Source of the DNA: Clostridiaceae bacterium
Lineage (GTDB): Bacteria > Bacillota > Clostridia > DSM-8532
Reading direction: 5' to 3'
NCBI GenBank assembly: GCA_012840245.1
Contig: DULR01000071.1
Span: forward strand, 1-42,478
DNA: 42,478 nucleotides
The translations under genes and the position numbers were made by a program. The notes under the pieces were generated by a model, which saw only the letters and a list, made by a program, of their open reading frames with translations, was not told the origin of the DNA and did not search any database. Each line of letters begins with the position of its first letter. The first letter of the stretch is position 1. Positions 21,673 through 28,181 of this stretch are shown in pieces.

Positions 21673-22278
21673 TTACTCTATAGTGTATTCCTTATATCCC
21701 TCATCATTATCGGGATCGGATTTTTGCTCCAAAGCAGGATAATTTGCTGTTTCGGGTGATGCAGGTGTGTTCCCGGTATTTTCCGGTGTCCCGCCTGTTC
21801 CTGCCTCTCCGGTTCCGCTGTCGGACCATGCTTTGGAGGAACTCTTATTGCCTGCTTCCTTCATCTTTTCGTTGATGTTCCTGAAAATATCATTGACATT
21901 TACGTTCTTGCTCTTCACATCCCGTACCGAGAATCTGTATCCCAACACAAGAAGCAGTATTCCCGCAATAAGGATAGGTACCCATAACGGGATGAACAGG
22001 ATCAGCAAAATCACAGGTATGGAAAACAGGGTCGAGTTCTGGTCCTCAACGAATATCCTCGTATCAAAACCTTTCTGAAGAATATCTGCAAAGTTCTTTC
22101 CGAAATCCTCCTGATGCTTCTTGTTCTGATGCCGGTGAGCTCTGCCCGATTTCGTCCGCTCAAAATCGATAATTGCATCAAGTATATCCCCGTTATTCTT
22201 CTCAAGATAATATTTGGCATCCTCATAGCTTGAATTTGTACGTTTTCTGAATTCATCTATCTGTTCTATCGTGATCAT
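21673..22278 (-). CDS. UBA-like (DUF4342-type) membrane protein, longer paralogue
   Basis: 201 residues. The N-terminal 45 residues (IDEFRKRTNSSYEDAKYYLE, NNGDILDAIIDFER) look like the UBA-like helical domain of DUF4342 proteins. A basic stretch follows, then a hydrophobic hairpin at about 84-110 (IPVILLILFIPLWVPILIAG) with a short motif FSVRDVKS shared with the neighbouring paralogue. The C-terminus is a low-complexity Gly/Thr/Pro/Glu tail. Function unknown. It has GGAGGTGAG before the ATG. Confidence 0.7.
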   Translation of the reverse strand: MITIEQIDEFRKRTNSSYEDAKYYLEKNNGDILDAIIDFERTKSGRAHRHQNKKHQEDFGKNFADILQKGFDTRIFVEDQNSTLFSIPVILLILFIPLWVPILIAGILLLVLGYRFSVRDVKSKNVNVNDIFRNINEKMKEAGNKSSSKAWSDSGTGEAGTGGTPENTGNTPASPETANYPALEQKSDPDNDEGYKEYTIE

Positions 22279-22325: not shown

Positions 22326-22745
22326 TCAGTTGCTTTCTCTCGCTTTGTTCTTTATTCTTTCAACAATGTTCTCCAGGTTCATATTAGGATCATGTATTTC
22401 CTGAAAACTGAACCTGTACCCCATGATAAGCATTAGGATCGCGACCAGCACGAGTATGTGCCATACAGGGCTCAAAAGTATCAGTAATAACAACGGTATT
22501 GGGAAGGCTTTAAAATCTTTATCGGTTATAACCAGCCTGATATCAATAAGCTTCTGGACCATTCTCATTATACCGTATAAAAACCTGTTCGCGCCAGTAT
22601 GAACTCCGCTCCCGCGTGTTCTTTCCCTTTCATAGGCGACGATTGCTTCAAGCAGATCTCCGTTGAACCTTTCCAGGTAATATTTGGCTTCCTCATAGGT
22701 TGCGTTTGTCCTTCTTCTGAATTCATCGATCAATTGAAAATTCAT
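22326..22745 (-). CDS. UBA-like (DUF4342-type) membrane protein, shorter paralogue
   Basis: 139 residues with the same plan as the next gene: UBA-like N-terminus (IDEFRRRTNATYEEAKYYLE, FNGDLLEAIVAYER), basic linker, hydrophobic hairpin (IPLLLLILLSPVWHILVLVA), then MGYRFSFQEIHDPN. It lacks the long polar tail. The two genes are a tandem duplication 47 bp apart. Both precede a two-component system and may be a membrane module that works with it; this is inference from location. Confidence 0.7.
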   Translation of the reverse strand: MNFQLIDEFRRRTNATYEEAKYYLERFNGDLLEAIVAYERERTRGSGVHTGANRFLYGIMRMVQKLIDIRLVITDKDFKAFPIPLLLLILLSPVWHILVLVAILMLIMGYRFSFQEIHDPNMNLENIVERIKNKARESN

Positions 22746-24307: not shown

Positions 24308-26038
24308 TTAAAATTCGATCTCATCATTATTGAACTTATTCCTGAAATCATCAAGAGTCAGTACGCCTCTTTTGATATAATCCGCGCCAAGCAGAAGGTG
24401 CTCCACACTGATCACGCCGCCCCTGACACCTGTATTCAGGCTGATCCTTTCGAGATGATTCCTGAAGTTGCCTTTAAAGAAACTGCTGACGAACAAAAAC
24501 ATATACTCTTTGACTGTCTCAGGGAAAATGCTCCACCACTTGTTAGGATTCGCCACTTCGTTTCTCTCTTTATTTTCCCGGACATATCTTTCCATCTCAT
24601 CTGCCTGGCTTATGGGCAGATTATAACCGTCCTTATATGCTTTAGTATCAACGATGACTCCGAATGTGTCGGTAAATATTGCGCCGTCGGGTCTTCTGCT
24701 GCCACCCAGATGACTTCCATTGAACCCATACTCTTTTATGAACAACTCAATTACTTTCATCTCGAACACCCTGTTCTGATCAGGATCCTGGGCGATCTCC
24801 ACAAGCTCGATATATTCATGCGGCAAAACCTTAAGATTTTCACGCAGCATAGCCTTTGTTTCTTCAATATCGCTTCTAACGACCTCAGTCACCTTGATGA
24901 CAGGAATCACAAAATCATTGATGGTGTCTCTCAGGGCATACCCGCGTGTAGACTCTTCGATATTCAGGCCAATATTTATCAGGCCCCTGATATCATCCCT
25001 GATGGTACCGACATCCTCATTGAATCCCATTTCCTTCAGTCTGTCTCTGATCTGCTCGGGTGTGATCATGCCGTTTGTCTTATCCAGAGATTTAAGAATA
25101 TATGCTCTTCTGGATCGTATATAATCTCTGTCCAGTTTCTTTGTGGCAAACATCTCCCAGCATACATGCTTCGTGATCCTGCGCGCGCCTGAAGCCGTAC
25201 CTTTTGCTCTCCTGAGCTGCCTCAGCCCCTCACCGGTTATTTTATATGCATGAGAAATACGCTCGACCTGTGACACATCACCCACTTTGAAAGTCTTATC
25301 TTCTTTTTTCACAAGGCCCAGCTTGGACAACCAGCCGGCTATCATTCTGGCATATTTGTCGGAAGAGCCTTCCCAGTCCTGGCGTATCTTATTCTTTTCG
25401 CTTTCATGGGCAGCTGACAGACTGCTGATGATTATCTCAAGCGGTAAAGATGTAAATCCTGGCTCTCCGTTGAAACCCAAATGCTTCCCGATATCGAACT
25501 TGGTAAGATGCCCTCCGTCGGACAAAAGATCCAGAACTCTAACCGCAGGAGGATATGTCAGCATGGCTTCGATCAGTACCTTTTTTTCATCGTCACTGTT
25601 TTCAGCCGTCCTGGAAAGATCGAAGCCAGACCTTGAAATATAAAAAGCATCTTCCAGATAGTCATACTCAATAAAGCCAAGAGCATAAGCCCAGCGGACA
25701 TAGCCGTCAGCTGTCCAGTTATCGGTAAAAGGCTTGCCCTGCCCCTTGATGATGGCCTGCGCTATACCGTTGCATCTGCCTTTGCTCCTGGGTATGAAGG
25801 AGGTCCCCACCAGATCGGCATATTTTATCTTCAGCGGTATTTTGTTCAGTATATTTATGAAACGGTCCCTTCCGTCATCCTTGTCTACGATTTTCGGTAT
25901 TATATTTGCTTTCAGGTCTGCATGGACCTCGGAGGTGTGGTCGAAGACCTGAACGAGCTTTTTCAGCTTCGAGAAATCACTGGGGTTCTGGATCCAGCCG
26001 AAGGTTCTGTTTGCAATGTCAGATATTTTTATTTCCAT
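24308..26038 (-). CDS. Type IIS restriction endonuclease, FokI orthologue
   Basis: The 576-residue protein aligns with FokI from end to end: RTFGWIQNPSDF, SDGGHLTKFDIGKHLGFNGE, DWEGSSDKYARMIAGWL, LPHEYIELVEIAQD, GGSRRPDGAIF, VIVDTKAY and the C-terminal FRNKFNNDEIEF. Residues 1-390 form the recognition subdomains. Residues 390-576 are the PD-(D/E)xK cleavage domain, with catalytic Asp451, Asp464 and Lys466 (FokI Asp450, Asp467, Lys469). The loop between the two Asp is four residues shorter. From memory of the FokI-DNA structure, Gln17, Asn18, Arg84, Trp108, Glu223, Lys228 and Arg231 match base-contact residues, while FokI Asn217 is Gln220. Recognition of GGATG is thus likely. The gene follows the methyltransferase by 31 bp. 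Confidence 0.95.
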   Translation of the reverse strand: MEIKISDIANRTFGWIQNPSDFSKLKKLVQVFDHTSEVHADLKANIIPKIVDKDDGRDRFINILNKIPLKIKYADLVGTSFIPRSKGRCNGIAQAIIKGQGKPFTDNWTADGYVRWAYALGFIEYDYLEDAFYISRSGFDLSRTAENSDDEKKVLIEAMLTYPPAVRVLDLLSDGGHLTKFDIGKHLGFNGEPGFTSLPLEIIISSLSAAHESEKNKIRQDWEGSSDKYARMIAGWLSKLGLVKKEDKTFKVGDVSQVERISHAYKITGEGLRQLRRAKGTASGARRITKHVCWEMFATKKLDRDYIRSRRAYILKSLDKTNGMITPEQIRDRLKEMGFNEDVGTIRDDIRGLINIGLNIEESTRGYALRDTINDFVIPVIKVTEVVRSDIEETKAMLRENLKVLPHEYIELVEIAQDPDQNRVFEMKVIELFIKEYGFNGSHLGGSRRPDGAIFTDTFGVIVDTKAYKDGYNLPISQADEMERYVRENKERNEVANPNKWWSIFPETVKEYMFLFVSSFFKGNFRNHLERISLNTGVRGGVISVEHLLLGADYIKRGVLTLDDFRNKFNNDEIEF

Positions 26039-26069
26039 ATTTCAACTCCTTCCCTGACAAAAACATCGA

Positions 26070-28028
26070 TCAGCCATGCTGATTTTCGGTCCGATAATTC
26101 GTGATAAGGACTTCCTCGCTTTTTCCTCTTCTTGTATTGTGCGATGAGTTTGAATAATCATGATCGAGGTAGTGGACATTATATTTTTTTGCCCAATCGA
26201 TCAGTATCGAATTCTCATCGCCCTTATGGGTAAGGACATTGGACAATGCGAATCTGATCCCGCGTTCATTCAGCGAATCCAGAAGATCCAGCAATTTTTG
26301 CTCCTGTTTGGCGTTCCAGTCCTTGAATCCTCTGTTCCCGTCATTATATGAACCGGTCGTTATGAGATAAGGCGGATCGCAATATACAAGATCATCTCCA
26401 TCGAAACCATCAAAGCTGAACATGTCGAACTCACAGGCTGAAAAAATGACTTCTTTGCTTTTCAAAGCTTCGATGAACCTTATGAGTTTTTGTTTCAGCT
26501 CATCGGAAAAATGGCTTCTGTTCCTGCCGAACGGATTGTTGTATTCATGGCTGTTGTTGAACCTCAGCTGATAATTGAAGGAATAACAGATCAATGTATA
26601 TAAGTCCAGAGGGTTTTTTGACCGGTTGTAAAAGTCCCTGAATCTTAAAAACCCCTCTTCATTGTACTTTGACAGGCTGAATTCTTTGATCCTTCTCTCA
26701 ATATGGCTCAGGATATCCTTAAGATCGTTTTTCCTGAAAGCCTTCAATATTTCTATCACATATGTGTTGATATCATTGGCGTAGATCACATCTGCGCTGA
26801 CATTTATTCCAACATTGAACCCGCCGGCGAACAGATCGACAAATTTATTTATTCTGGAGGGAAAAAGAGGCATTATCTGTTTGAGCAGCCTGTACTTTCC
26901 CCCGATATAGTTAAGAGGGCTCTTTATATATCCTTTCCCCTTATACGAACCGACGCTGGCTTTTATGTTTATGGGCTTGCTTTCCTTTGATTTGTTCACA
27001 TCCATGTCTTTACTAATATAAAACAGGTATTCATACAATTCGTCGGTTTCCTGCTTATGCTTGCTCTTATACTTTCTGTACGGCAGCTTATAGAATCGGT
27101 ATGTGCTTTCTGAGCCATGCCTGGTGAGAATGCTTCTGATTTCAGATTCGGAAAGCAGTCCGTCGGATGAGTAGCTTACTATGATATGCCTGAATCGGGC
27201 ATTCTTTATCAGATCTTCAAAGGAACCTGCAACTTCGCTTCTGATGCAGTATTTCGATTTCTCCTCTTCATATGTGCGCAGTCCCGTCTTGCCGTATAAA
27301 ACAGGATTATCGTATCTTGCGATGGTTTCGAGCAGATGATAGTTGGAAATGTATTGCCGGCCGTTATAGGGCGGATCAATGTACAGGATGTCACCTTCAA
27401 GTCTCTTTATGAGCTTGTTGGCATCCTCGTTATAGCAGTGGTTTTTCATTCCGTTATCGGTCACGTCAATGCTTCTGAGCTTCAGATCGCCCAGCGCTCT
27501 TTTGTCCCAGTGCTTCAGGTATGCGCCGTATGTACCGCTGATATTGGATATGAAAGGGACAGCCTCGATCAGGACCGCAAGCAGATAAGTGTACTCATTC
27601 TCATTCAGAAGGCCTTCATTTTTCCACTTTTCGATGGTGATCCTTATAAAATCGATCCTGCCTGCATTTTTAACAGTGAAGTACATTCTTTCATTGTCCA
27701 GATAAGGTGAAAAATTATGAGTTATAAAGTAACCGCTGTCGATCGAATAGCTTTCGTTCTCCAGATAGAACAAAGGATCTTCGATACCGGCAGCTTTGAG
27801 TTTTCTGAAATCGGGTATGGTATTGTTCTCGATTTTGGCTTTCTGGATTATGTAAGAAAAGTACAGCAAGTCATTTGAGATAATTCTGTAGTTCTTTTTG
27901 AAATATTCCCCCACAACGCCTGTTCCGGAAAAAATATCTGTAAAGCTTTTGACATCATCCTTGACATTCTCATTGATTACTTTTTCTATCTGACTGAGTA
28001 AATTGATCTTGCTGCCAATAAATCTCAT
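26070..28028 (-). CDS. Fused double DNA adenine methyltransferase, M.FokI-like
   Basis: 652 residues, two D12-class N6-adenine methyltransferases in one chain. The first has MRFIGSKINLL at its start, DIFSGTGVVG (31-40) and catalytic DPPY at 218-221. The second has NYIGGKYRLLKQIMPLFP, DLFAGGFNVG (398-407) and DPPY at 551-554, ending EEVLITNY. M.FokI has 647 residues with DPPY at 218 and 548, a near match of plan and spacing. Each half would methylate one strand of an asymmetric site, and both are needed for protection. I use ATG 28028, since MRFIGSK is the usual family start; a GTG at 28037 is also in frame. It is the first gene of the operon. Confidence 0.93.
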   Translation of the reverse strand: MRFIGSKINLLSQIEKVINENVKDDVKSFTDIFSGTGVVGEYFKKNYRIISNDLLYFSYIIQKAKIENNTIPDFRKLKAAGIEDPLFYLENESYSIDSGYFITHNFSPYLDNERMYFTVKNAGRIDFIRITIEKWKNEGLLNENEYTYLLAVLIEAVPFISNISGTYGAYLKHWDKRALGDLKLRSIDVTDNGMKNHCYNEDANKLIKRLEGDILYIDPPYNGRQYISNYHLLETIARYDNPVLYGKTGLRTYEEEKSKYCIRSEVAGSFEDLIKNARFRHIIVSYSSDGLLSESEIRSILTRHGSESTYRFYKLPYRKYKSKHKQETDELYEYLFYISKDMDVNKSKESKPINIKASVGSYKGKGYIKSPLNYIGGKYRLLKQIMPLFPSRINKFVDLFAGGFNVGINVSADVIYANDINTYVIEILKAFRKNDLKDILSHIERRIKEFSLSKYNEEGFLRFRDFYNRSKNPLDLYTLICYSFNYQLRFNNSHEYNNPFGRNRSHFSDELKQKLIRFIEALKSKEVIFSACEFDMFSFDGFDGDDLVYCDPPYLITTGSYNDGNRGFKDWNAKQEQKLLDLLDSLNERGIRFALSNVLTHKGDENSILIDWAKKYNVHYLDHDYSNSSHNTRRGKSEEVLITNYRTENQHG

Positions 28029-28042
28029 CTTTCGCACATCCT

Positions 28043-28083
28043 ATAACATCCTTGTCATATTATAAAATAAAATAGGATGTTAT
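28043..28083. repeat. Inverted repeat with GGATG motifs around the restriction-modification promoter
   Basis: Arms ATAACATCCT (28043-28052) and AGGATGTTAT (28074-28083) are perfect complements separated by 21 bases containing the -10 box. Each arm contains GGATG/CATCC. A third copy (CACATCCT on the plus strand, 28035-28042) is adjacent on the start-codon side. GGATG is the expected target of the encoded enzymes. Confidence 0.8.
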
Positions 28084-28087
28084 TCAA
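28059..28087 (-). promoter_or_regulatory. Promoter of the FokI-like restriction-modification operon
   Basis: TTGAAT (28087-28082), 17 bases, TATAAT (28064-28059) on the minus strand. One inverted-repeat arm overlaps the -35 edge and spacer, the other covers the expected start of transcription. The leader is about 25 bases. Confidence 0.75.
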
Positions 28088-28130: not shown

Positions 28131-28181
28131 AAAAAGTGCACCCAAATACCAGAAGCGTCTGACATTTGTGGTGCACTTTAT
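28131..28181 (-). terminator. Intrinsic terminator of guaA
   Basis: Stem AAAGTGCACCCAAAT pairs with ATTTGTGGTGCACTTT (one bulged base) around a 16-base loop. The minus strand continues into a T-rich run (TTTTTATTG). It lies just past the guaA stop codon and about 45 bases from the restriction-modification promoter. Confidence 0.75.

What the first reader, a model, noticed from the sequence alone, without database searches (positions are those of the whole stretch)
24308..28028. Complete FokI-type restriction-modification system in a clostridial genome
The nuclease aligns with FokI over its whole length, and the methyltransferase shares M.FokI's fused two-domain plan and DPPY spacing (218 and 551 here; 218 and 548 in M.FokI). 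Gene order (M then R) is the same. Most remembered base-contact residues of FokI are kept, with Asn217 to Gln and Asn218 to Asp as changes in that cluster, so GGATG or a close variant is expected. FokI homologues outside Flavobacterium-like hosts are few as far as I know.
Basis: partly seen in the sequence, partly recalled or inferred. Interest (0 to 1): 0.8.

Follow-up and report, generated by a model that had tools for sequence, protein, structure and literature searches.

The report
FokI-type restriction system, self-regulated methyltransferase
This is an ordinary, intact FokI-type DNA restriction-modification pair (a bacterial defence against foreign DNA), but its methyltransferase gene, like all FokI-partnered relatives found here, starts with two precisely spaced copies of the enzymes' expected target site, which suggests that the methyltransferase controls its own production.

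Summary
Window 24308-26038 (-) encodes a full-length FokI relative (54% identity over 564 aa, all four FokI domains, catalytic residues kept). Window 26070-28028 (-) encodes an M.FokI-type fused double adenine methyltransferase, upstream in the same operon. The rarity claim is wrong: FokI's own host is a Bacillota; FokI-like genes lie on Lactobacillaceae, Lactococcus and Weissella plasmids; and clostridial examples (Csp12AI, Clo051) are published. The gene pair is a new member of a known kind.

This GGATG-N5-GGATG element is present in 11/11 distinct loci with a FokI-type nuclease, in 2 of 9 sister systems without one, and nowhere upstream of the nuclease genes checked. It is kept letter for letter in a sister species that lost the nuclease but kept the methyltransferase. 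Flanks are not conserved. This strongly supports GGATG specificity and suggests, as inference, R-independent autoregulation by the methyltransferase. Methylation-controlled methyltransferase promoters are known elsewhere (CfrBI, AhdI, LlaDII); I found none described for FokI-type systems in the open literature searched.

The parts
24308..26038 (-). R: FokI-type type IIS restriction endonuclease, 576 aa, intact
   Evidence: phmmer 1FOK E 2e-192; 4 Pfam FokI domains; D451/D464/K466 = FokI D450/D467/K469, N18 = N13, D480/R484 = D483/R487
26070..28028 (-). M: M.FokI-type fused double N6-adenine methyltransferase, 652 aa (possible GTG start at 28037)
   Evidence: two D12 domains, DPPY at 218 and 551; PADLOC MTase_II profile over residues 1-648
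28047..28051 (-). first GGATG of the tandem operator-like element
   Evidence: invariant in 13 of 13 aligned leaders and in G004
28037..28041 (-). second GGATG, 10 bp downstream of the first, overlapping the presumed ribosome-binding site of M
   Evidence: invariant with exactly 5 bp between copies in 13 of 13 aligned leaders
28059..28087 (-). promoter of M: TTGAAT (28087-28082), 17 nt, TATAAT (28064-28059)
   Evidence: scan; both hexamers kept in sister species G004 while the spacer diverged; comparable promoters in all 14 leaders, mean 8.57/12 vs shuffled maximum 7.64
28075..28079 (+). third GGATG (CATCC on the M strand) inside the promoter spacer; not conserved
   Evidence: CATTCC in G004; extra sites in a few other leaders at other distances
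28131..28178 (-). terminator-like hairpin with T run that closes guaA, so the R-M unit starts from its own promoter
   Evidence: read in the sequence: AAAGTGCACC ... GGGTGCACTTTTT
26046..26051 (-). ribosome-binding site of R (AAGGAG, 7 nt before ATG); R starts 31 bp after the M stop
   Evidence: sequence

Best explanation
It is a complete FokI-type (type IIS) restriction-modification operon, M then R, on its own promoter between guaA and an MFS transporter gene. Shown by sequence: both enzymes have all domains and catalytic motifs, and the M leader carries GGATG-N5-GGATG at the predicted transcription start, overlapping the ribosome-binding site, as in every FokI-type locus found. Inferred: R binds GGATG with its N-terminal part and cuts outside the site, roughly 9/13 nt away, through transient pairing of nuclease domains. 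Inferred: M methylates the adenines of GGATG and of CATCC, one strand per domain, and protects the host. Inferred: M also acts on the two sites at its own promoter, by binding or by methylating them. In an unmethylated new host M would be made at once; as M accumulates and the sites become occupied or methylated, transcription or translation of M (and of R where it is downstream in the same operon) is throttled. Sub-estimates: R-M identity 0.97; GGATG specificity 0.9; the tandem is a functional cis element 0.85; M-mediated negative feedback 0.6.
For: Identity. Tandem element: GGATG-N5-GGATG 5-9 nt before the M start in all 11 distinct loci with a FokI-type R, plus L027 and L169. All ten core bases have 2.0 bits; the 45 bases upstream average 0.45 bits; chance of the tandem in a 60-nt leader of the same composition is 4.5e-5. 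It tracks M, not R: present with M-R, R-M and convergent gene orders, and no GGATG within 150 bp upstream of R in seven loci. In sister species G004 (guaA 92% identical) M is intact (91%, changes mostly at third codon positions: 39/33/154), R is absent from a 99%-complete genome, and promoter hexamers plus leader are identical while the promoter spacer diverged. Control: scanning viral contigs for the DNA pattern alone gave only one listed locus with M. Precedents: CfrBI, AhdI, LlaDII (PMC12707154); LlaJI has two cognate sites in its promoter (PMC1459862).
Against: No methylome, expression or binding data were available. The second GGATG sits in a Shine-Dalgarno-like AGGATGTG(A), so part of the constraint may be translational. 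Sister systems with a different R and mostly split M (L028, L029, L031, L163, L164, L165, L167, L168) lack the element although their M domains are 41-55% identical, so it is not required by every M of this kind. FokI's, StsI's and Csp12AI's own leaders could not be read here. GGATG is only slightly depleted in the window (96 observed, 108 expected).
Confidence: 0.8

Rival explanations
1. The tandem is only a duplicated Shine-Dalgarno region of M; GGATG resembles AGGAGG and has nothing to do with the enzyme's target.
For: The second copy usually reads AGGATGTGA, one base from an extended Shine-Dalgarno sequence (AGGAGGTGA), 5-9 nt before the start codon.
Against: All 26 cores in the 13 aligned leaders are GGATG, never GGAGG. 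In L005, L027 and L007 one copy is not preceded by A. GGATG brings an unwanted upstream ATG. The first copy is too far from the start codon. M relatives without the tandem use canonical GGAGG (L031, L165, L167).
Confidence: 0.15
2. The element is read by the nuclease: R binding or cutting at unmethylated leader sites destroys or silences the locus when methylation fails.
For: FokI cuts 9/13 nt downstream, which would fall in the start of M; more than one site stimulates FokI cleavage (PMC4081073).
Against: The element is identical in G004, which has no R, and is never placed before R in the loci checked.
Confidence: 0.05
3. R recognises a close variant of GGATG because of Gln/Asp at FokI positions 217/218.
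Against: The same columns vary (N/Q/T/S; N/D) among relatives that all carry GGATG leader sites, while Q12, N13, R79, W105, K225 and R228 are kept in this protein.
Confidence: 0.08
4. The tandem persists only by recent common descent of the leader DNA.
For: The systems are mobile, and all fused M proteins are homologous.
Against: M proteins are only 48-51% identical between the window and most loci and the upstream flanks show low conservation, while ten bases and one spacing are invariant.
Confidence: 0.03

Closest known systems
FokI R-M system (Planomicrobium okeanokoites)
   Same: R domain plan, catalytic residues, fused two-domain m6A methyltransferase
Csp12AI, Clostridium sp. 12(A) (PMC4752239)
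   Same: FokI-like R and M.FokI-like m6A methyltransferases in a clostridium; activity tested
   Different: There M1 and M2 are separate and R lies 1.2 Mb away; here M is fused and R adjoins it
Clo051 (Clostridium; nuclease of Cas-CLOVER, PMC13055120)
   Same: Clostridial type IIS restriction endonuclease with a C-terminal nuclease domain used as a dimer
   Different: Sequence not available here; specificity not stated in the source read
FokI-type systems on Lactobacillaceae, Lactococcus and Weissella plasmids (e.g. WP_081528907, WP_347450078)
   Same: Fused M, FokI-type R, GGATG-N5-GGATG leader
   Different: 29-41% identity in R; some have R first or convergent genes; on plasmids, whereas here the pair lies between guaA and an MFS gene
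CfrBI, AhdI, LlaDII, LlaJI regulation (PMC12707154, PMC1459862)
   Same: Cognate target sites in the methyltransferase promoter serve as control elements
   Different: Other specificities and enzyme families; here two direct copies at a fixed 10-bp period at the transcription start, family-wide, effect not yet measured
Sister systems with a PDLC03445-type nuclease (Psychrobacter, Bartonella, streptococcal prophage)
   Same: Homologous M domains (41-56%); two of ten (L027, L169) share the tandem leader
   Different: Nuclease of about 470 aa without sequence similarity to FokI; M mostly split; eight of ten lack the tandem

Membership tests
FokI-type type IIS R-M system | R with FokI recognition subdomains D1, D2, D3 and FokI cleavage domain in this order | tested here: met
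FokI-type type IIS R-M system | single PD-(D/E)XK active site (FokI D450, D467, K469) | tested here: met
   D451, D464, K466; invariant in all nine full-length sequences aligned; D450A as catalysis-deficient from PMC4081073
FokI-type type IIS R-M system | M is two fused D12-class m6A methyltransferases | tested here: met
FokI-type type IIS R-M system | recognition of GGATG/CATCC | tested here: inconclusive
   indirect: conserved GGATG-N5-GGATG leader; N13, R79, W105 kept
FokI-type type IIS R-M system | cleavage 9/13 nt downstream after dimerisation | not testable with these tools
   residues recalled as dimer contacts, D483 and R487, are kept; distance needs an assay
FokI-type type IIS R-M system | m6A on both strands of the site in the host | not testable with these tools
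   no long-read data
MTase-promoter-methylation autoregulated R-M (CfrBI/AhdI/LlaDII/LlaJI kind) | cognate target sites within the MTase promoter or start region | tested here: met
   cognate only if specificity is GGATG
MTase-promoter-methylation autoregulated R-M (CfrBI/AhdI/LlaDII/LlaJI kind) | methylation or MTase binding changes transcription | not testable with these tools
   needs reporter or binding assay
Controller-protein (C) regulated R-M | small HTH C gene next to R or M | tested here: not met
   no separate same-strand ORF of 60 aa or more between guaA and M or between M and R

The most novel reading that the evidence does not exclude
FokI-type systems across Bacillota and Pseudomonadota share an undescribed, R-independent autoregulatory switch: two target sites one helical turn apart at the transcription start of the methyltransferase gene, possibly occupied together by the two DNA-binding domains of the fused enzyme, which sets its own dose.
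Probability: 0.45. Interest if true: 0.55.

Novelty: new member of a known kind. Interest (0 to 1): 0.42.

Why it matters
FokI supplies the nuclease of zinc-finger nucleases and TALENs, yet I found no account of how its R-M genes are kept in balance (open literature searched only). A conserved pair of target sites at the methyltransferase promoter makes that directly testable with a reporter. It also gives a sequence-only clue to the recognition site of uncharacterised FokI relatives. The R-less sister species offers a natural case of a solitary methyltransferase that kept the same control element.

Tried and rejected
Rarity outside flavobacteria: rejected. A variant site from residues 217/218: not supported. 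Third GGATG in the promoter spacer as part of the element: rejected, not conserved in G004 and irregular elsewhere. Cluster of three sites in this window by itself: not remarkable, since other 5-mers of similar abundance average 0.7 such clusters per window; only the comparison between loci makes it significant. GGATG avoidance in the window: weak, 96 against 108 expected. Upstream ATG-stop mini-ORFs created by GGATG (for example ATGTGA): seen in most leaders, taken as a by-product. Scan of viral contigs by DNA pattern alone: chance matches except L117. R in phage records: none. Genome contigs had one scan only, so Planomicrobium and Clostridium sp. 12(A) could not be fetched. No structure prediction was run, since R is 54% identical to a crystal structure.

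Full report
Check of the observation. Both genes are real, intact and at the stated place. R (24308-26038, minus) matches FokI from residue 11 to its end with E = 2e-192, is 54.3% identical over 564 residues and carries the four FokI Pfam domains in order. Catalytic residues (FokI D450, D467, K469), the binding residue N13 and the residues D483 and R487 (recalled as dimer contacts) are kept (D450A and N13Y as loss-of-function mutants from PMC4081073). M precedes R by 31 bp and R has a good ribosome-binding site. A terminator-like hairpin separates the unit from guaA.

Distribution. The host species has one copy. In its genus, G002 has the full pair at another locus (R 64%, M 70%), and G004 has M only. 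One of 398 sampled genomes of the phylum, the window's own, has the FokI recognition domain. Plasmids of Lacticaseibacillus, Lactobacillus, Lactococcus and Weissella carry FokI-type systems, most of them already annotated as FokI-like, and staphylococcal plasmids carry R fragments, one seen truncated next to IS257. Oligella and several IMG/VR contigs carry further ones. FokI's host is Planomicrobium, Bacillota. Clostridial relatives are published: Csp12AI (PMC4752239) and Clo051 (PMC13055120).

The leader. Upstream of M stands TTGAAT-17-TATAAT followed by ATGACAAGGATGTTATAGGATGTGCGAAAGATG: two GGATG in direct orientation, five bases apart, at the predicted transcription start and over the ribosome-binding site. 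In this window alone that could be chance. Across loci it is not. All 11 distinct loci with a FokI-type R (window, L012, L002, L005, L006, L007, L008, L009, L010, L159, L161) have GGATG-N5-GGATG 5-9 nt before the M start, and so do L027 and L169, whose partner nuclease is of another family. The ten core bases are invariant while upstream flanks average 0.45 bits; the chance in one leader is about 4.5e-5. Promoter-like hexamers lie 6-16 nt upstream in all 14 leaders; their mean score exceeds that of every shuffled set.

Control loci. Seven M relatives of similar identity without a FokI-type R lack the element (L031, L163, L164, L165, L167, L168, L171), as do AlwI-type and other more distant ones. 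Two-sided Fisher test of FokI-type R against the tandem, 11/11 versus 2/9: p = 0.0005; the grouping was made after seeing the data. Most of these relatives pair with a nuclease of about 470 aa of the PDLC03445 family.

Which protein reads it. The element follows M in every gene order (M-R, R-M, convergent) and is not found before R in seven loci. The strongest test is G004, the species with the closest guaA (92%). At the same site it has an intact M (91% identical; substitutions 39/33/154 by codon position, so under purifying selection) followed directly by the MFS gene. R is absent from a 99%-complete genome. The promoter hexamers and the 30-base leader are identical to the window, while the 17-base promoter spacer has changed and the window's third, inverted site is not a site there. 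A control element that persists without R is most simply explained by action of M.

Mechanism, with what is shown and what is inferred. Shown: gene content, catalytic motifs, conserved promoter and tandem, independence from R. Inferred from FokI: GGATG recognition, cutting at about 9/13, one strand methylated per M domain. Inferred from precedent (CfrBI, AhdI, LlaDII in PMC12707154; LlaJI's two promoter sites in PMC1459862): M binding or methylation at the transcription start limits M, and limits R where R is in the same operon, after establishment in a new host. Whether binding or methylation is the signal, and its sign, cannot be told from sequence. The 10-bp period puts both sites on one face of the helix, which would suit one fused enzyme touching both; this is speculation.

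Specificity. The leader gives independent support for GGATG.

Limits. Literature was searched only in open-licence PubMed Central papers. The original FokI and StsI sequence papers, and the leaders of fokIM, stsIM and Csp12AI, could not be read, so whether the tandem was ever remarked on there is unknown. IMG/VR contigs carry no host names. L160 is a near copy of L159, and L117 and L162 are the same contig as L005; these were counted once.

Noticed in passing
G004:C267:18283-20220 (locus L215/L220): Sister species keeps an intact M.FokI-type methyltransferase without R at the same chromosomal site: a solitary methyltransferase, probably left after loss of its nuclease.
   Followed up: yes
L011 (Staphylococcus haemolyticus plasmid), H6-H13: Staphylococcal plasmids carry only the DNA-recognition half of a FokI-type R (308 aa in L011), there beside an IS257 transposase; several product names still say FokI catalytic domain.
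   Followed up: partly
L027:5293-6708, L169:1519-2916, L028, L029, L163, L164, L165, L167, L168: A nuclease family of about 470 aa without Pfam match (PADLOC PDLC03445) sits with M.FokI-like domains; by size and gene plan it may be the GGATG-methylating lineage of Prevotella Pin25611FI (PMC5608340). L028 and L168 carry two copies side by side.
   Followed up: partly
L031 (Streptococcus phage Javan105, 3001-6047): Streptococcal prophages carry split M.FokI-like domains followed by an N6/N4 methyltransferase, with a PDLC03445-like nuclease on the opposite strand.
   Followed up: no
window 26069-26083 (-): Terminator-like hairpin across the M stop codon, followed by CGATGTTTTT just before R; could lower R relative to M, but the scan count is not far above shuffles.
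   Followed up: no
window 21673-22278 and 22326-22745: Two tandem paralogous small proteins with an N-terminal UBA-like stretch and a membrane segment, directly after guaA in several sister species (L019, L021, L024).
   Followed up: no
G003:C220:1305-3207 (L222, L223): Another species of the genus has a split, more distant pair of related methyltransferase domains (43% and 39%), without the tandem.
   Followed up: no
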